From Ectocarpus siliculosus (taxonomy: Eukaryota; Sar; Phaeophyceae; Ectocarpales; Ectocarpaceae), in NCBI GenBank assembly GCA_000310025.1, contig FN648381.1, positions 1 through 44,514 on the forward strand: DNA of 44,514 bases, given 5' to 3'. This document shows positions 11,881-44,514 of this stretch, piece after piece (position 1 is the stretch's first letter; every line of letters starts with the position of its first letter). Both the position numbers and the translations under genes were made by a program. Under the pieces are notes generated by a model that was not told the DNA's origin, did not search any database, and was given only the letters and a program-made list of their open reading frames with translations.

Positions 11881-12248
11881 TCACATCACCAAGCGCGAAG
11901 CGCCGTGAGGCATTTGGCGAGTCGCATGAAGGGTGAGCTGCATCCTGCTAAGGGTGTTCGACATCTTGTGCTTACTTCCTTGCGTACGGATGACAGCTGC
12001 GTATGACTTAATTTATTTTCTGGTGCTTTCACTTCCAGAGACAGTTGTAAGCACTGTGTAACTGCCTCGAGGAAGCTTGACCATTTTAACACAACGTGGT
12101 GCGATCATCCCCCGTTGCGCGGAGTGAGGTTTCTCGACCCCGCACAACATGATCTACTCGACCACCATTATGGTTACCGCCAAAAAAAAAACCAGAGGTG
12201 AAAAAAAAAGACGGTAACCAGGTTGCCGAGTTCACGAAGTGAATTGGC
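11881..12248. other. No gene seen
   Basis: No convincing coding sequence, RNA gene or repeat is visible apart from A-runs at 12181-12190 and 12202-12210. Confidence 0.4.
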
Positions 12249-12512
12249 TTGTTTTACAACGTCGGTGCCAATCGACGAAAACCCCATCCCGATGGCAAAC
12301 ACCGAGTGGGGGGCTTGTTTTACAACGTCGTTGCCAAGCGACGAAAACCCCATCCCGATGGCAAACACCGAGTGGGGGGCTTGTTTTACAACGTCGTTGC
12401 CAAGCGACGAAAACCCCATCCCGATGGCAAACACCGAGTGGGGGGCTTGTTTTACAACGTCGTTGCCAAGCGACGAAAACCCAAACCCCGATGGCAAACA
12501 CCGGGGGGGGGG
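12249..12512. repeat. 66-bp minisatellite, four copies
   Basis: The unit beginning ttgttttacaacgtcgttgc starts at 12249, 12315, 12381 and 12447, an exact 66-bp period. Copies 2 and 3 are identical over their length as far as I can read. Copy 1 differs at a few bases, and copy 4 diverges at its end into a G run (12504-12515). Because 66 is a multiple of three and no unit holds a stop in most frames, all overlapping frames show a 22-residue repeat. That includes the minus-strand 280-codon frame at 12174-13016, so the open frames are not evidence of a gene. Confidence 0.95.
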
Positions 12513-13524
12513 GGGATGTTGTTTCCTTGTGGCAGTGTGTGGGCAAACGCAGCCCTGTTGTAACGATATATAATTGAACCAGGCGTAGGGCGGCCAATTG
12601 TGCTTATTTACATGGATAGGGATGTCGACCGGTACGGGGGTTCGTATTTTCTGATGGCTTGCAAAGCAACAGAAGGAATTACCACGACTTATCGCGAGGC
12701 TGGTGTGTGCAATGATGAACCAGTTTTTTTGTGCTTCTCGGCTGCCACGGCAGAAATGTTCCGGCTTGGGTTTGTAGTTTGCTGCCTGTGATGTTCGTAG
12801 GTTAATATTGATAATCAACGTTTCGGCGCTCGAAGTACGACGAACGCAGTCAAAGGTAATTGGGTTAGGGCAACACCACAGGAACACAGCACTTCCGAGA
12901 CCATTGTAGAGGCGATCAAAACAACAAGCCAAATTGAAATCATGACCACGAAAAGATACGGCTTTGACCCTGACACAACAGCATTGTGCCGTCAGCCACG
13001 ACAACGTCGAACACACCTACAGCTACATAGCACTTGGTTGCAACACGCCAACATGTCCAAGTAGTAGGTCTTGCGAAGGTTGGCTGGTGCCTCTAGCACG
13101 AGAACGCCTCAACTACGGAGGCTTCCAATTCCTCGTTGCCAGGCCACAACACACGGCAAGCGTGCGTGAAACACTCCGCCCTCTTGAGCTGCACTCCCCT
13201 CCCTCGAGCGTTCATGGCCATCGCCCCGTCGAAGCAAGCCTGTGGCATTACATGCATTGACCAGCATACACACATCAGTCACCGGAACCTTACTTACATA
13301 CACATTCATATGGACGGAGAAGGCGAGGAGTGTGCCCATCAGCCATACTGCAGTGGGCATATTGGCGTTTCAAGACGGCATGCCACTTCCAACTCAACTC
13401 CCCAGCGTCGTGAGGGGTGCATTAGCGATATTCGCCGACACCCGCACAGACAGCCATTTTCGAAGAGTAGGGCACAGTCAAGGGAGAAAGCCAACAACAT
13501 GAAACACACAGAGCATCGTACAGC
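12513..13524. other. No recognised gene
   Basis: A minus-strand frame of 280 codons (13016-12174) crosses this stretch and the minisatellite. Its non-repeat half has no recognisable domain and ordinary composition, so it is not called as a gene. Nothing else stands out. Confidence 0.35.
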
Positions 13525-37681: not shown

Positions 37682-39730
37682 TTAAAGCACAGATCCAGAT
37701 GGGGCAACAGCCAGCTGTGCCACAACGCCTGGTGTTCGCGACGTAACGCCATCATCCGTGGAGGGGTTGGTCAAACCACGAATACGGTGTTTTTGCAAGC
37801 ACCAAGAACCACAAGGAGCATCCAAAACCGTGGAGTAACTATACTCCGGGAGAGAAAGCTTTCGAGGGCCGGGGGTGTCCAAAAATCGAACAATGTACTG
37901 ACCTGTTACGAAACTACTAATCTGCCCAAGCCATCAAAGTCCATCCAAAGCTTTGTACCAAATGTGGGCTCCGACAGGCAAAACAGAAACAGAGAAGCGA
38001 GCCAACCAAATGTCACGCGAAACCAACTCGTACCCAGGAGCAATGAAACGTTCGGCTTGATTCCGAGCAAGTTCTCGGTCGGCCGAAGCTATCCGAGCAT
38101 TACGATAAGCTCGGTCTCCTTGTACGCGCTGACTAGCGTTACCAGACCAGTAAAGCAGAATGTGTTTTCTGTATTCCTGCAAATCAGACTCCCTTTCCCA
38201 CGACGGTGTCAACAAACCAATCCAATGGGTCAGGTACAAGACAGCTACCACACCACCGCGTCCACGTACAATTTGGTGTCCTGAAATATTCTCAACATCC
38301 AGACGACTAGACTCCGCTAAAATATCATCAGCAGTCAAATTGTACGGGGGAGACTTGTTACTATACGAGTGCAAAACATATTTCGACAGATTGGCCGGCA
38401 TATACTTAGGCAGGTCATCCGTGTCGTATGGGTTGGTACACGGTTTGCACCGCAAGACGGAGACACGGTTGCGGGATTCTGGTCCCAGCATGTCTGACGG
38501 CAGGTCCAGGTAGAGAAGTTTGCGCTCCACAGGTTTTCCATCCGGTGAATCCTCCGCTTTGGCCGGGCCAACAGCGAGGATTTTATACGGTCCGGTGTAG
38601 TTGAGCGAAAGCTTCGCTTTGAGCACCGAATCATCGGTGTGTTTCCGCACACCCTGCCGAATAGTAGCGGCAGAGTTGTAGACCCAAGCCCAACCACCAA
38701 CTTCGTATTTCGGGACCTGACGCAGACCGTCCAACAGTGCAGAGTTACGACGTTCGACACGCGACACCGTAATCGCATGCTGTTCCCGCACCAACGCGTA
38801 AGCTCGTCTCTGGCGTTCCACCGCAAGATTGCAGAAAGCGAGCTGGTCTCGATCCAAACTTTGATGGCCACCCACGCTAGGGTGGTCCAAAACAGAAAGC
38901 GGGAGACGGGGCAACCGTCCAATATGCACTTCATTCGGCGCCAAACCTGTGGCGGTGTTTACCGAGTTGTTGTATGCAAACTCGACATGGGGAAGATGGA
39001 CGTCCCAATCGTCCTGACGCTCATTGACCACAACAGCAAGCATTTGAGCCATGGTGTGGTTAACACGCTCGGCCCCACCGTTAGTTTGGGGGTGGTACGA
39101 ACTGGTGGTGACTGTCTTGATCTTCATCAGCTCGTAAATAGCCATGGACAACTTGGAACAAAATTGCATACCGTTATCCGAAAAAAGAGTCACCGGACAA
39201 CCCCACAACGCCGTGTAGCAGTTGACGAAAATGTTAGCCGTTCCCTTAGCGGTAAATTCCGCCTTGGTAGTGGCATACATATCCGCCCGTCGACTGAAAC
39301 GGTCCGTAAACAAAAGTATATATGCATTCCCACGGGACGTGACCGGCAATGGCCCAAAAAAATCGACGCTCACTACAATACCCGGCCCATTCGGGAGGGG
39401 CAGAGTGAGCGTAGGCCAGCGATACGTTTGCCGGGAAGTCTTGCGCGCTTGGCAAATTAAACAATGCCGAAGCCACCAACGAACGGACAAATCCATCCGA
39501 ATCCACCAGAAAAATCGCTCCAACATACGTAAAGTCCGAGCGGTGCACAGGTGAAAAGACGCGGTGGCGTGACATGCTTGTAGGACCCAAGGTCGCAATA
39601 GCATAGGCACGTATATGCGGGGAGTCTTCGAAGGCGGGAGGCGAGTGATACGCCCGCCCGAACTACCGATAGGCAGTGGGGCAGAATTTCGCACCAACAA
39701 TCGCGTACCATCGTCTGTGTGTGTAGGCAT
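37682..39730 (-). pseudogene. Integrase with chromodomain and Tudor/Agenet-like tail (Ty3 pol C-terminus)
   Basis: Positions are in the frame starting at 39730. An H-H-C-C zinc region (H54, H60, C90, C93) is followed by the integrase core: D123 (SVDFFG), D185 (SDNGMQF) and E221 (GGAERVN), the last two 35 residues apart as the DD35E rule needs. After a GPY-like stretch (YTGPYKIL, about 377-384), residues 478-528 form a chromodomain (HQIVRGRGG, VLYLTHWIG, SWERESDLQ, YRKHILLYW). Next comes a tail reading GYELVSRDIWLARF and IWYKALDGL. The frame stops at TGA (37931-37933) where relatives probably have Trp, then runs on open: WLGQISSF, YIVRFLDTPGP, GSWCLQKH, to a true stop at 37682. The tail resembles Tudor/Agenet folds (tentative). 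The integrase inserts element DNA into the genome; the chromodomain would direct it to marked chromatin. Confidence 0.85.
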
Positions 39731-41139
39731 GTTTTAGATGCGAGGGCGACAACATCAGACAACGCCGGCCGTCGCGCACAGGGCAAGCAATCCGAGAATG
39801 TATCCGGCAAAACCGCCGGGGATCCCAAAGACAAAAAATGTATAGCCGCGACACACTCACTTTCTGACAGCTGTTCTCGGGCCCAATCGGCATGCGAGAA
39901 TGTATGCATACAGTCGCGGAGGTGAGCTTCCTCAGCGGCCGTGGGCGGCACCACGGAAGTCGCAGGGCTAGTACCTGCGGGCGACAACACTGGCGGCATG
40001 GGCGCCGCGGGCGGCGGTGGCGCCGGGGTGGCGGCAGCAGGCGCGGGCGGCGGCGGCTGCAATTCAGCCGGCGCCGGAGAAGGCAGCGGGCCAGAAGTAG
40101 GGCTACCCACGGTTCTCGTAGACCGCGCGGAACGGCTCGACCGGGCCGGCGTTCGAGGAGGTCGCGGCGGTCTAGGCACCACAACGGCCCGTGGTTGTTT
40201 CGGAAAATAATTGGGACGGCTGTGAGCCATGCCCGAGGCCGAATTCGTTCTCGCCCGGGTACGAGAAGAAATCAGAGGGCCACGCGAAAGCGACAGGGCA
40301 GCTGAGGAGGTTCCGACGGTGGACGAGGGAGCGACGTCTGGCTCCGCAGAAACGGAAGCCGGAGGAGGTCCATCGGGCACAGAACTCTCGGGGGCTGCAT
40401 CGCAAACGACAGCGAAAACACCAGGCGGCGAAAATTTCGACGAATCAACTACGGAGGACGGCGACAGAGCCGGCAGGACCATTTGTGGCCCAAAACGGTG
40501 GAAGTCCCCAAAGTCATCCTCCGTCAGAGGCGCGTGTGCCAACGCGTCTCGTTGATCGTCAATGTCAAGCCCACCCAAGCCGATGTTCGGCGTCGAACTA
40601 GAGTGATAACTCCGTCCGCACGCACGAATGAGATACACGCCCGCGGCGTCATCGACTGCGATACTGGTGTCCCCGTGTCTATCCGCGTCGGTTGCCGGCA
40701 GGGGCAACCGCGAAAGAAAATCCGCGTTGGCGTTGGCAGTGCCTTTGCGGTAGACAAGGGTGTAATTGAACGAGGAAAGGAACTCGAGCCAACGTTAGAC
40801 GCGGGCGTTGTGTTCACCCACCTTGACGATGCTCTCCAAAGCCTTGTGATCCGAATGAATCAGAAAGTGCGTAGACCAAAAATAACCGCGTAAGCGTTTA
40901 ATTGCCCACACGATACTTCCAGCTTCCAAGTCGAGCACTGTCCAATTGCGCTCGGATTCGAGCATAGCGCGGCCAACGAACAGAATGGGACGGGTGGAAC
41001 CATCGGCCTGTTCCTGTTCAAGGGCCGCACCAAAACCATCGATACAGGCGTCACAGCAAAGCCGGAGAGGGCGGCTGCCATCTGCGACAGCGTCCCAATC
41101 CGGGAAAGCCAAAACCGGAGTTTCGGACAGTTTCGCCAA
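39715..41139 (-). pseudogene. RNase H and Pro-rich linker of Ty3 pol
   Basis: Continues the RT frame after the TAA at 41143. The RNase H catalytic residues are visible: DACIDGFGAALEQ (first Asp), LDLEAGSIVWAIKRL (Glu) and HSDHKALE (Asp). A TAA at 40795-40797 interrupts the conserved GEHNARV-RWLEFL, where relatives have Gln. After RKGTANANADFLSRLP, an unusually long Pro/Ala/Ser-rich linker of about 250 residues (40650-39900) leads to DWAREQLSESECVAAIHFL, the normal run-up to the integrase zinc region. The frame is lost near 39716 in a CACACACA run; removal of one CA unit would restore it. RNase H degrades the RNA strand during reverse transcription. Confidence 0.85.
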
Positions 41140-41142
41140 GAG

Positions 41143-42888
41143 TTATTTGACAGTATCCGCCATAGCCGGCGTAAAACAAAACTTCGCGTCCTTACGCAGA
41201 AGGTCTGTGAGTGGTTTCACGCGCATGGCCAAACCCTTGATGAATTTGCGGTAATACGAACCCTTGATGAATTTGCGGTAATACGAAAGCCCACCCAGCA
41301 AGGAACGCAGCTTTTTGACGTTGTTAGGCAGCGGCATTTTTGTGAGGGCTTCGACCTTATCGGCACGAGGACTAACACCCGCAGGGGAGATTGTGTGACC
41401 TAAATAAACGGCCTCCTTGGCGCCGACGCGACTCTTGAAAGGAGAAAGCTTGAGGTTGAACTTGCGCAAACGCTCCAAAAATAGCCGTATGTTGGCGACA
41501 TGGTGGATGGGGTCGGCGTCAAACACAATCACATCATCCAGGTATGCAAGCACATGGTCCAGACCTTTAACCACTTCGGTGATGACCATGGTGAACCACG
41601 ACGGTGCCACGGAGCTTCCCTGAGGCATACGGAGCCACTCGAAAAGTTGCGTGGGCGTACAAAACGCCGTAAGCTGAACCGTGTCCTCTTCGACGGTGAT
41701 TTGGTGGAAAGCGGAGTTAAGATCGAAAATGGAAAATACCTTGCCCTTGTGCAGGGAATCGATGATGTGGTCAACTCGCGGCTGCGGTTGTTGACCAAGG
41801 CTGCACAATTTGTTAAGCTTTTTGTAGTTCACGGTCAAACGCAGATTGCCGTACTTTTTAGGCATGACAACGAGAGGGCTCGCCCACGGCGATTGCGAGT
41901 GCTGAAGAAGACCGGCAGCAAGGTATTGATCGAGAATTGCATCGACCTTTTTCTCCACCAGTGGGTTGAGCCTACAGGGACGCGAGGCCAACGGTTTCGT
42001 TCCCGGGGGCACTTCCAAACGAAACGGTTTCACGGAACAGCAACCGAAATCGGACGGTGACCGCGGAAACACATCCGAAAAGTCACACAGCACATCCGCC
42101 AGGCTGTCGATGGCTTCCGGGGTCCAACCCGAGTCATCTAAATCAAACGTCACATCGTGCAAATGTGCAGGCAAACGTTGCCACAACTCGCGAAAACTCA
42201 CTCGCTGCGCTTCTGAGAGGCGTTCCAACAGATCCGGTGGCGGCGGTTTCGGCGGCAGTGAGGCCGCGGGGGAATCCGAGATCTCCGGATCCGCAACCGG
42301 GATGTTTGAATGCAAAGAATTCACGCGAGACGGCGGCCCATCCGCGGAACGGGCTGGCGGCGGAGGGTCACTCAACCCGACACCCTCGGCCGTCTGCGGT
42401 GTAGGATCAATCGACGCAAGCGGAATCTGCACAAGTGGGGCAGTCGCCACTCCAAGCACCTCACCTGGCTCCAACTCGGCGCACCCTGTCAATGGGATGT
42501 GTTGAGGCCCGTCCGAAACAAACGCGCTCGACGCCGAGAGGGCGCCGTGTTTCGGTAAAAACGTGACAAGATAGATGCCGGTGAGAGCGGGGGTCCCAGA
42601 GTTGCGAACGAGGTTCACCCTCGTCAAAGTGGGTTTATCGGAAAGGGAGACACCCTTCCTGCCGGCGTACCGCAGGAAGTAAGATGCCCCGGGGGCGGAG
42701 GGTCCAGCGACATACGCGGAAGCTCCCGCCGCAAAATCCGATGACAGAGAAAGTTTCTCCATATTGCGTCCACTTGCCGACCGCGTGGGCAAAGTAGCGG
42801 ACAAACGAGAGTTAAAACGCATCCAACTATCACGTCCAAGAAGGAGGGCGTGACCCGTGGCGGCAGCTGGGACAACATACACCCACAC
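41143..42888 (-). pseudogene. Protease C-terminus and reverse transcriptase of Ty3 pol
   Basis: 581 codons. Residues 10-25 (TGHALLLGRDSWMRF) are the second half of the retropepsin (the LLGRD element). A Pro-rich spacer with two acidic stretches (about 160-280) follows. RT starts near 305 (RPCRLNPLVEKKVDAIL) and includes LTVNYKKLN (351-359), FSIFDLNSAFHQI (385-397, first catalytic Asp), LPQG-like MPQG, AYLDDVIVF (448-456, catalytic YLDD) and YLGHTIS. SYYRKFIKG occurs twice in a row (535-552), from a 27-bp tandem duplication absent in ordinary RTs. It ends at an in-frame TAA (41143-41145) before the RNase H domain. The boundary with the upstream frame is a -1 step at an A6 (T6 in sense) run. 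Confidence 0.88.
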
Positions 42889-42890
42889 CG

Positions 42891-44321
42891 CTAACGAAGC
42901 GGTGGCACTATCACCATAAAAAATTGAACGGACAGCCGCACGGATGAGGTGGTTTCAAGGGCATTGCCATAGCCAAAACCACCCCACTGCCGAACGGGCA
43001 CCGAACGACGACTGTGGACGGATGCAGCTCTTGACGCCTCCATGGCTTCAAGGAAAGCATCACTAATAAAAGATGAAGGTGAGCCCGAGTCCAAAAGGGC
43101 TACACCAGTCGCTGTACACACGGCTCCGGTACCACTATGAACGCGGACTCGCGTCGTAGAGGTATCGCAATCTACTAAAACATCACCGCTCACCAAATCT
43201 GGGCCGTGTTCCGCCAATAGCGGCGGTGGGGAAGCGGCGGCTTCGCGAAAAGCAGCAGAGGCAATATGCAGCACCTGTTTCGAGTGGTCCGCGGGCGTGT
43301 TGGCTGGCACGTCCAGCGGGCCGCGCGCGTCCTCGGGCGAGGAATCATTGACCGAAGAGTCCTCACCCGGGGGCGCAATTTCGTGGATAGTGGGACACAC
43401 GGGACCAGGTTGCCCCGAGTGTTCAGGGCGTAAAGGCTTATCGGGTTCGACCGGGCGCACACGCAGGAGCGTGCGCGTCGCAACAAGCGCTTTGCCCAAG
43501 AGGTTTTTACCAGTCCACTTGGAGGGCGACGCCGCACGCGGATCGAAGGCATCAACACCAATGCCCCACAATCCGTCATAAGGACTGGCCTCCGCTATCT
43601 GTCTATCACCCGTAGCCAACAAACGTTCACGCGCGTCAGCATTTTTGGCAAATTTTGCATACAAAAGCGAAAAAACAACATCCTCGCGCCGGAGTTCCCA
43701 TAGAGCATGGTCAAAACCGCGTACCTTGCGACCAAGGGACTTGTGTTCTCCCGGGTCGGAGGTAGCCATGATTTTGGCATAAGCGGCATCATCGCCGAAA
43801 ATCCGGGCTTTCTCCGCCATCATGAACTGTTCGCCGCACACGTAGCGAATGCCATGAACCGTGAACTCACAGGGCGTCCAGTTAGACAGAAAGGACGGCG
43901 GTTTCCGAAAGAGGAAAACCTCATCGTTATAATATTCCTGACAACCGTCAAAAACAGGGGCCTGCCGCGCGGGTGCGCTTACCTTCCCCGAAGAAATATT
44001 ATCAAGAGAAATGGCACCGGCAACCGGCAGGACAATCTGGGTGCCGCCCGAAGGCGGGCCGGATGGTGGGTTACGAGGAGAGGCAGGCAAGAGCGGTGAA
44101 CCAGCCGCAGAAGCGTGCGAAACCAAGCGGTCTACGCGGGCGTTTTCGCGCCAAACGTCGGCGTAGGCCTGTTCATTAAAAGCGGCCTTCATCGCGGGCG
44201 CTCGACCAACACGGTCAGCGGCCGCGGGAGGCTCGGGACCGCTATTTCGTGACAAAGAACATGAACCTTCCGATTTGGGGAAACCGTTACTTGCGCTCGG
44301 CAACGGCGGTGCAGTCAGCAC
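42891..44321 (-). CDS. NADAR domain fused to aspartic protease (Ty3 gag-pro region)
   Basis: 476 codons, uninterrupted. Residues 1-128 are low-complexity, Pro/Ser/Ala-rich. Residues 129-290 (43937-43452) form a full NADAR domain: FLSNW (144-148), GEQFMMAEKA (163-172), LGRKVRGF and W208, KFAKN, LLATGDRQIAEASPYDGLWG (234-253), GKNLLGKAL (271-279) and R283. The DUF1768/YbiA-type superfamily binds ADP-ribose-containing molecules; members act in riboflavin metabolism and in removing ADP-ribose from guanine. After a linker, residues 383-430 start the retropepsin with VALLDSGSPSSFI (catalytic Asp 411). It ends at the T6 run where the frame must step -1 to continue the protease. No CCHC zinc knuckle is seen. 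All main NADAR motifs are present. Confidence 0.88.
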   Translation of the reverse strand: MLTAPPLPSASNGFPKSEGSCSLSRNSGPEPPAAADRVGRAPAMKAAFNEQAYADVWRENARVDRLVSHASAAGSPLLPASPRNPPSGPPSGGTQIVLPVAGAISLDNISSGKVSAPARQAPVFDGCQEYYNDEVFLFRKPPSFLSNWTPCEFTVHGIRYVCGEQFMMAEKARIFGDDAAYAKIMATSDPGEHKSLGRKVRGFDHALWELRREDVVFSLLYAKFAKNADARERLLATGDRQIAEASPYDGLWGIGVDAFDPRAASPSKWTGKNLLGKALVATRTLLRVRPVEPDKPLRPEHSGQPGPVCPTIHEIAPPGEDSSVNDSSPEDARGPLDVPANTPADHSKQVLHIASAAFREAAASPPPLLAEHGPDLVSGDVLVDCDTSTTRVRVHSGTGAVCTATGVALLDSGSPSSFISDAFLEAMEASRAASVHSRRSVPVRQWGGFGYGNALETTSSVRLSVQFFMVIVPPLR

Positions 44322-44514
44322 CGTGCGACGTTGGTGCTCCGTAGAGGAACGTCGCGAGGGTTAGGGTTAGGTATGCCGAAGGCCCCGACTTGTCCTTCGT
44401 CTCCAAGAAACGTTTCACCCGAGAAAACGAAGAATCCACCAATTCGCGGGTTGCGGCATTGGCGCCTTGAGGGTTCGAAATGGCCATAAGGACACGCTTG
44501 TGAAAGGGGGCATA
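44287..44514 (-). pseudogene. Gag-region fragment, open to the window edge
   Basis: The frame is open from the window end and reads HKRVLMAISNPQGANAATRE, then SFSRVKRFLETKDKSG. It passes through a telomere-like tract (CCTAACCCTAACCCT in sense, 44358-44373) and then stops at 44287. The NADAR frame overlaps it in another phase and is closed upstream by the TAA triplets of that tract. The tract is thus the likely site of the frame break. I cannot identify a capsid motif in so short a piece; more of gag lies beyond the window. Confidence 0.5.

What the first reader, a model, noticed from the sequence alone, without database searches (positions are those of the whole stretch)
43452..43937. Intact NADAR domain built into a Ty3/gypsy gag-pol precursor
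Seen: a complete NADAR domain (LSNW, EQFMMAEKA, LLATGDRQIAEASPYDGLWG, GKNLLGKAL) lies in one uninterrupted frame with the retropepsin DSG, upstream of RT, RNase H and integrase. Known: NADAR proteins bind or process ADP-ribose compounds, and some reverse guanine ADP-ribosylation laid down by DarT-type enzymes. Inferred: the element may carry it to erase ADP-ribose marks on its RNA or cDNA (counter-defence), or to handle NAD-derived metabolites in the particle. The adjacent protease could release it. I cannot say whether NADAR-bearing retroelements have been described before.
Basis: partly seen in the sequence, partly recalled or inferred. Interest (0 to 1): 0.88.

Follow-up and report, generated by a model that had tools for sequence, protein, structure and literature searches.

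The report
NADAR enzyme domain in algal retrotransposons
More than a hundred retrotransposon copies in what looks like a brown-algal genome carry, inside their Pol protein, an intact-looking enzyme domain of a family that strips ADP-ribose from nucleic acids; the fusion is already in print, but its job is unknown and testable.

Summary
A complete NADAR domain (Pfam E 1.5e-45) lies in one frame with the protease DSG motif, upstream of RT, RNase H and integrase. It is no one-off capture: 122 of 150 scored RT hits of this lineage have a NADAR just upstream, and the 12 exceptions checked (of 28) showed no intact NADAR-less element. In copies with long frames the order is upstream (gag-position) frame, one UGA, then Pol = leader, NADAR, PR, RT, RH, INT, chromo-like tail. 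So NADAR belongs to Pol. Nine catalytic or ADP-ribose-contact residues are kept in 38-41 of 41 readable copies. The fold matches ADP-ribose-bound Phytophthora NADAR. Between two subfamilies NADAR is as conserved as PR, unlike its leader. Unnamed environmental proteins carry the same fusion.

NADAR at the N-terminus of Pol in one Ectocarpus Gypsy lineage was published in 2025 (PMC12477816), so the core finding is known. I add the UGA junction, residue census, constraint, wider range and a separate spliced host NADAR gene. Erasing guanine ADP-ribosylation from element RNA or cDNA is plausible but untested.

The parts
43452..43937 (-). NADAR domain, YbiA type, uninterrupted
   Evidence: Pfam PF08719 E 1.5e-45; AlphaFold2 mean pLDDT 96.5; Foldseek to 8bau TM 0.89
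42894..43256 (-). aspartic protease (retropepsin) region with LLDSGSP, same open frame as NADAR
   Evidence: motif read by eye, no Pfam hit; region conserved across the lineage, D-S/T-G in 7 of 7 rows of alignment A1
43257..43451 (-). NADAR-PR linker
   Evidence: 51/88 identical between L012 and L016
43938..44360 (-). remaining part of the Pol leader; in-frame stop at 44361-44363, where relatives with long frames are open further upstream
41326..41949 (-). reverse transcriptase (another frame than NADAR-PR in this copy)
   Evidence: RVT_1 E 8.2e-29; lineage search
40795..41139 (-). RNase H
   Evidence: RT_RNaseH E 3.4e-24
39089..39610 (-). integrase: H2C2 zinc binding and rve core
   Evidence: E 1.1e-12 and 4.6e-9
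38150..38296 (-). chromodomain-like tail behind integrase
   Evidence: Pfam Chromo E 0.064, below its cut-off; 0.0025 to 0.11 in three other copies, also below

Best explanation
The NADAR is a standard domain of the Pol polyprotein of a Ty3/gypsy lineage. It was probably gained once, before the lineage split into its present subfamilies, and has been kept under purifying selection. SHOWN: position leader-NADAR-PR-RT-RH-INT; upstream (gag-position) frame and pol in one frame, parted by a single UGA followed by C in the ten junctions read; catalytic and ADP-ribose-contact residues and fold kept. INFERRED: ribosomes read through the UGA at low rate, so NADAR enters the particle in enzyme amounts as part of Gag-Pol, and the adjacent protease frees it. 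It then works as an ADP-ribosyl (or related N-glycosyl) hydrolase in the particle, most likely removing ADP-ribose from guanine in the packaged RNA or nascent cDNA, so that reverse transcription is not blocked. My step-wise estimates: anatomy about 0.95; active N-glycosyl/ADP-ribosyl hydrolase about 0.75; target is the element's own nucleic acid about 0.4.
For: 150 scored NADAR hits of 230 candidates in the genome, all 150 over the Pfam cut-off; 22 of the 150 lie in open frames of 2,000-2,600 aa with no stop in the match (counted by eye; two longer frames left out, of which the one fetched, L023, is open in all six frames over 4.4 kb and so appears to run into N). 122 of 150 scored lineage RT hits have NADAR upstream on the same strand within 4 kb, 118 of the 122 at 1,459-1,787 nt. 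In 41 readable own-genome copies (of 48 held): E43-equivalent 40, K50 38, E125 41, D130 40, W133 41. Nine such positions are invariant across seven diverged element sequences, where 56 of 159 columns are (P 5e-5; the same residues are also common in bacterial NADARs). Between L012 and L016: NADAR 123/158 identical with no gap column, PR 80/101, but leader 156/450 with 89 gap columns. dN/dS 0.07 and 0.20 in the two NADAR pairs where dS is measurable. UGA-C at 10 of 10 junctions read, in four subfamilies. Structure matches 8bau, a NADAR with bound ADP-ribose. Characterised NADARs reverse guanosine ADP-ribosylation on DNA and RNA (PMC11543638, PMC11833690; passages).
Against: No activity is shown for any element NADAR. 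NADAR changes faster than RT (dN/dS about 2.7- and 15-fold higher in the same two pairs). The conserved residues would equally serve another N-glycosidase substrate, as in YbiA of riboflavin metabolism. No DarT and no KptA hit in the genome, and only four short PARP matches, so no writer of guanine ADP-ribose is identified; exon-split genes may be missed. No hairpin beyond chance follows the UGA (4 of 4 folds, z -0.04 to 0.44), so read-through itself is not shown. The upstream frame is called gag by position only: no Pfam domain was found in the three such frames scanned.
Confidence: 0.4

Rival explanations
1. Metabolite clean-up: the domain hydrolyses soluble ADP-ribose or NAD-derived or riboflavin-pathway N-glycosides in or near the particle, protecting reverse transcription from reactive sugars or countering a soluble host signal.
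For: YbiA acts on riboflavin intermediates (PMC11543638, passage); NADARs of DNA viruses and phages have been proposed to act on soluble ADP-ribose derivatives (PMC9503650, passages). The pocket residues are the same.
Against: The same authors argue that NADARs of eukaryotic RNA-virus polyproteins primarily target macromolecular ADP-ribose. A gain from packaging a general metabolite enzyme at Pol level is less obvious. Neither is tested here.
Confidence: 0.25
2. Binding module: the domain binds ADP-ribose, NAD-capped RNA or ADP-ribosylated chromatin proteins and serves packaging or target-site choice, catalysis being incidental.
For: Position next to the protease and Pol start; these elements also carry a chromatin-reader-like tail (below cut-off).
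Against: E125 and E43, the residues at the distal ribose, are kept as strictly as the phosphate-contacting ones, while D86, which touches only the adenine-side ribose, is free to vary.
Confidence: 0.15
3. Passenger: a captured host or bacterial gene carried along without function.
For: Some copies are decayed (6 of 48 held have a stop in NADAR; two more have an out-of-frame segment).
Against: Kept through subfamilies whose NADARs are only about 55-60% identical; gap-free while its leader has diverged; dN/dS well under 1 with 2dlnL 43.9 and 114.9 against neutrality; present in environmental relatives.
Confidence: 0.03
4. Assembly join or host gene beside an element.
For: The window copy appears to end at an assembly gap (L009: all frames open beyond it).
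Against: Same order in 122 places of one genome and in proteins from other contigs. The host NADAR gene found has introns and no protease behind it.
Confidence: 0.01

Closest known systems
NADAR-bearing Gypsy lineage of Ectocarpus, e.g. Gypsy-12_Ec32 (PMC12477816, passages read; supplements not read)
   Same: Ty3/gypsy Pol with a YbiA-family NADAR at its N-terminal region and a putative C-terminal chromodomain; brown alga; NADAR blastp hits outside Ectocarpus almost exclusively bacterial
   Different: No difference established. In its main text the terms 'readthrough', 'stop codon' and 'in-frame' do not occur; the NADAR passages I saw do not discuss catalytic residues, selection, or NADAR-Gypsy relatives in other genomes.
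Tx1 LINEs of Crassostrea gigas with NADAR in ORF1 (PMC12477816, passage)
   Same: NADAR in a retroelement
   Different: Non-LTR element; domain in ORF1; described there as divergent
NADAR domains in polyproteins of positive-strand RNA viruses, e.g. nidoviruses (PMC9503650 passages; Foldseek hits to yellow head and gill-associated virus proteins)
   Same: NADAR embedded in a replication polyprotein
   Different: RNA viruses; no reverse transcription
Phytophthora nicotianae NADAR, PDB 8bau (PMC11543638, passages)
   Same: Fold (TM 0.89), YbiA-type Glu, ADP-ribose contacts; shown to remove guanine-linked ADP-ribose
   Different: Characterised as a stand-alone NADAR; 32% identity in the structural alignment
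Ectocarpus protein Esi0017_0056 (PMC7922944, passages)
   Same: NADAR domain in the same kind of alga
   Different: 391-aa gene with two predicted introns; its apparent counterpart here, at G000:C24, has no element protease behind it

Membership tests
Ty3/gypsy (Metaviridae-type) LTR retrotransposon | Pol order PR-RT-RNase H-integrase | tested here: met
   (PR by motif and homology, the rest by Pfam in the window)
Ty3/gypsy (Metaviridae-type) LTR retrotransposon | long terminal repeats | tested here: inconclusive
   self-comparison of the loci showed no repeat pair flanking an element, but loci were at most 10 kb, shorter than a whole element, and the 5' side of the window copy appears to be next to a gap
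NADAR superfamily, YbiA subfamily | significant match to the NADAR profile | tested here: met
   E 1.5e-45
NADAR superfamily, YbiA subfamily | Glu at the E125 position (Asp in the DarT-linked BC4488 type) | tested here: met
   41 of 41 readable own copies, 12 of 12 environmental rows
NADAR superfamily, YbiA subfamily | N-glycosyl or ADP-ribosyl hydrolase activity | not testable with these tools
   needs protein
DarT-NADAR toxin-antitoxin module | adjacent or genomic DarT | tested here: not met
   0 DarT hits in the genome; no such domain found in the element pieces scanned
[quoted passage not shown]
Published Ectocarpus NADAR-Gypsy lineage | C-terminal chromodomain | tested here: inconclusive
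   Chromo E 0.0025-0.11 in 4 of 4 tails scanned, all below the Pfam cut-off
Published Ectocarpus NADAR-Gypsy lineage | sequence identity to the published families | not testable with these tools
   consensus sequences not held

The most novel reading that the evidence does not exclude
A retrotransposon lineage carries, packages and protease-releases its own nucleic-acid ADP-ribosylhydrolase, made at Pol level by UGA read-through, to erase guanine ADP-ribosylation that the host places on retroelement RNA or cDNA. Brown algae would then have an undescribed ADP-ribose-based defence against reverse-transcribing elements, with the element's NADAR as counter-defence.
Probability: 0.2. Interest if true: 0.85.

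Novelty: already known. Interest (0 to 1): 0.45.

Why it matters
If the domain is an active eraser in the particle, nucleic-acid ADP-ribosylation is a real pressure on reverse transcription in a eukaryote, and the elements tell us where to look for the writer. The physiological role of eukaryotic NADARs is stated to be unclear (PMC11125620, passage); an element that keeps one under selection gives that question a concrete substrate pair to test: particle RNA and cDNA.

Tried and rejected
Idea dropped: that the Ectocarpus protein Esi0017_0056 (391 aa, NADAR at 132-291, two predicted introns; PMC7922944, passages) is a gene model cut out of an element. The genome holds a gene at G000:C24 whose three exons give 391 aa with NADAR from residue 132, and no element protease was found behind its NADAR exon. 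Start (the only Met upstream in that frame) and splice points were set by eye, and I knew the published length when I set them.

Tested and weak: hairpin after the UGA (none beyond chance in 4 of 4); dN/dS between most subfamilies (of 21 NADAR and 21 RT pairs only L013-L016 and L015-L027 have dS under 2.5); Pfam domain in gag-position frames, leader or RH-INT spacer (none in those scanned); DarT and KptA in the genome (none).

Results against a simple story. With the host gene added, the best tree no longer has the element NADARs as one clade without it. It falls among them near the base (92/95 for the joint group; 89/86 for its place). An element-only clade is not rejected (p-AU 0.329). The host row is a long branch. 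So capture from a host gene, from bacteria, or a host gene derived from an element cannot be told apart. The 27 rows that I labelled bacterial were drawn from hits to element NADARs, which favours near ones, and only 7 of the 27 bear a bacterial name.

Full report
WHAT IS THERE. The window ORF 42891-44321 (-) contains a full NADAR domain (Pfam E 1.5e-45) and, in the same frame, the protease motif LLDSGSP (by eye). RT, RNase H and integrase domains follow downstream. In this copy NADAR-PR, RT and integrase are in three frames, a stop parts RT from RNase H, and an in-frame stop lies 423 nt upstream of NADAR. It is a damaged copy with an undamaged NADAR.

IT IS FAMILY-WIDE. The genome (189 Mb, 492 contigs, unnamed) gave 150 scored NADAR hits of 230 candidates, all 150 over the curated cut-off. 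A search with this element's RT gave 150 scored hits of 461 candidates, 53-99% identical. 122 of the 150 have a scored NADAR on the same strand within 4 kb upstream. I looked at 12 of the other 28 RT hits: 4 have a frame-shifted NADAR, and 8 have none in the expected 1.1 kb and no DNA match there to the 28 reference loci. One of the 8, followed over 5.2 kb, keeps the protease and then runs into DNA without NADAR. The remaining 16 were not examined. Of the 28 NADAR hits without a scored RT, 17 were examined: 16 are elements (protease or RT beside them) and one is a host gene (below); 11 were not examined.

ANATOMY. In copies with long open frames the order is an upstream frame (about 340 to 1,020 aa visible; gag by position, without Pfam match in the three scanned), one stop, then the Pol frame (22 of 150 NADAR hits lie in frames of 2,000-2,600 aa). 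Pol has a leader of about 280-435 aa, NADAR, PR, RT, RH, a spacer, INT and a chromo-like tail. Two leaders and one spacer that were scanned had no Pfam match. I read ten junctions, chosen because one stop parts two frames in line; in 10 of 10 the stop is UGA followed by C, in four subfamilies. L016 also has UGA. This arrangement suggests read-through; Candida Tca2 also parts gag and pol by UGA (PMC2194720, start of abstract in a listing). No hairpin beyond chance follows. If so, NADAR is made with the Pol enzymes and not with Gag.

CATALYTIC STATE. I mapped residues by alignment to the Phytophthora nicotianae NADAR (8bau), whose contacts are given in PMC11543638 (passages); all 11 named residues were recovered under one numbering offset. 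Among 48 own-genome NADARs held, 41 could be read without a stop over at least 85% of the domain (6 had a stop, 1 was split); the 41 include two with an out-of-frame segment (L020, L021). E43-equivalent is kept in 40, K50 in 38, K75 in 38, R79 in 38, W89 in 39, R93 in 39, E125 in 41, D130 in 40, W133 in 41 of 41. The Y84 position is Phe in 39, and D86 is variable. The model of the window domain has mean pLDDT 96.5. Its only PDB matches with E under 0.001 are 8bau (TM 0.89, E 2.6e-12) and YbiA 2b3w.

SELECTION. Between copies L012 and L016 (RT stretch 181/199 identical) identity is 35% in the leader with 89 gap columns, 78% in NADAR with none, 58% in the NADAR-PR linker, 79% in PR and 67% between PR and RT. 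Pairwise codon models give dN/dS 0.069 (L013-L016; dS 2.3, so near saturation) and 0.204 (L015-L027; dS 0.9) for NADAR, against 0.026 and 0.014 for RT. The other 19 pairs of each domain were saturated at silent sites. So NADAR is constrained about like the protease and less than RT. NADAR and RT trees agree on the deep split and on the subfamilies; the order within one half is unresolved in the NADAR tree. Some copies are young: 97.3-99.4% DNA identity over about 2.6 kb in 15 within-subfamily pairs.

WIDER RANGE. Profile search with the NADAR-PR piece gave 137 proteins, 120 listed. Ten without any organism name cover 81% or more of the query (two of them, P0126 and P0127, were rows of the query itself; P0127 and P0138 are near-copies). 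All ten contain NADAR followed by a D-(T/S)-G protease motif by eye. One of them (P0141) stands for 76 sequences and lies on a 1.08-Mb contig, so it is probably a repeat family of another eukaryote; its name is not given. The element proteins that bear an organism name in the lists are from Ectocarpus sp. CCAP 1310/34. In a tree of 60 NADARs the 25 rows taken as element domains (13 own, 12 environmental) form one group (98/97) next to stand-alone NADARs that I labelled bacterial, 7 of 27 by name. Of the 12 environmental rows 7 show the protease region in the same protein; the other 5 were placed with the elements by sequence likeness. Environmental rows are interleaved with the algal subfamilies, so the subfamilies look old.

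A HOST NADAR GENE. At G000:C24:329598-332898, three exons with GT-AG boundaries, set by eye, give 391 aa with NADAR from residue 132. This equals the description of Esi0017_0056 in PMC7922944 (391 aa, residues 132-291, two predicted introns). It supports the genome being Ectocarpus or a near relative, and shows that the host has its own NADAR. Added to the tree it joins the element group (92/95) with a long branch and unsettled place. The source of the element domain, host gene or bacterium, is therefore open; PMC12477816 suggested horizontal transfer from its bacterial blastp hits.

KNOWN OR NEW. [quoted passage not shown] My literature searches (open-access library only; judged from listings, which for one search show 40 of 3,020 papers, with few papers opened) showed no other report of NADAR in an LTR element. 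That main text has no hit for 'readthrough', 'stop codon' or 'in-frame'; its supplements were not readable here. The finding itself is thus known. The UGA junction, residue census, constraint profile, environmental relatives and host gene are additions as far as I could see.

FUNCTION. NADARs tested so far hydrolyse ADP-ribose from guanine in DNA and RNA but not from phosphate ends (PMC11543638, PMC11833690; passages). A reverse-transcribing particle contains both RNA and single-stranded cDNA, so an eraser packaged at Pol level is a coherent role. But no writer is identified: DarT 0, KptA 0, four short PARP matches (genes split by introns may be missed). I hold hydrolase activity as likely and the counter-defence role as possible.

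Noticed in passing
G000:C24:329598-332898 (L102, L095, L103): Spliced 391-aa host NADAR gene matching the published description of Esi0017_0056; its N-terminus has a Cys/His-rich motif that may bind zinc, followed by a Gln run.
   Followed up: partly
window 12246-12512: Four copies of a 66-bp tandem repeat, open on the minus strand (ORF 12174-13016); a similar peptide ends the Ectocarpus NADAR protein P0111.
   Followed up: no
window, near 44361-44375: Short telomere-like tract (GGGTTAGGGTTAGG) at the in-frame stop upstream of NADAR.
   Followed up: no
window 41232-41287: 27-bp tandem duplication in the RT-RNase H stretch; duplicates a nine-residue peptide.
   Followed up: no
L009, L010, L012, L015, L017 between RNase H and integrase: About 1.1 to 1.4 kb between RNase H and the integrase match; the piece of L017 that was scanned has no Pfam domain.
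   Followed up: partly
L015 and L027: RT 95% identical but NADAR only 77%; L027's NADAR is nearest to the environmental protein P0126. Recombination between subfamilies is possible.
   Followed up: partly
P0160, P0184, P0205, P0218, P0224: Proteins whose listed Pfam domains join NADAR with Macro (PF01661), PF10021 or PF03747, other domains of ADP-ribose processing as I recall.
   Followed up: no
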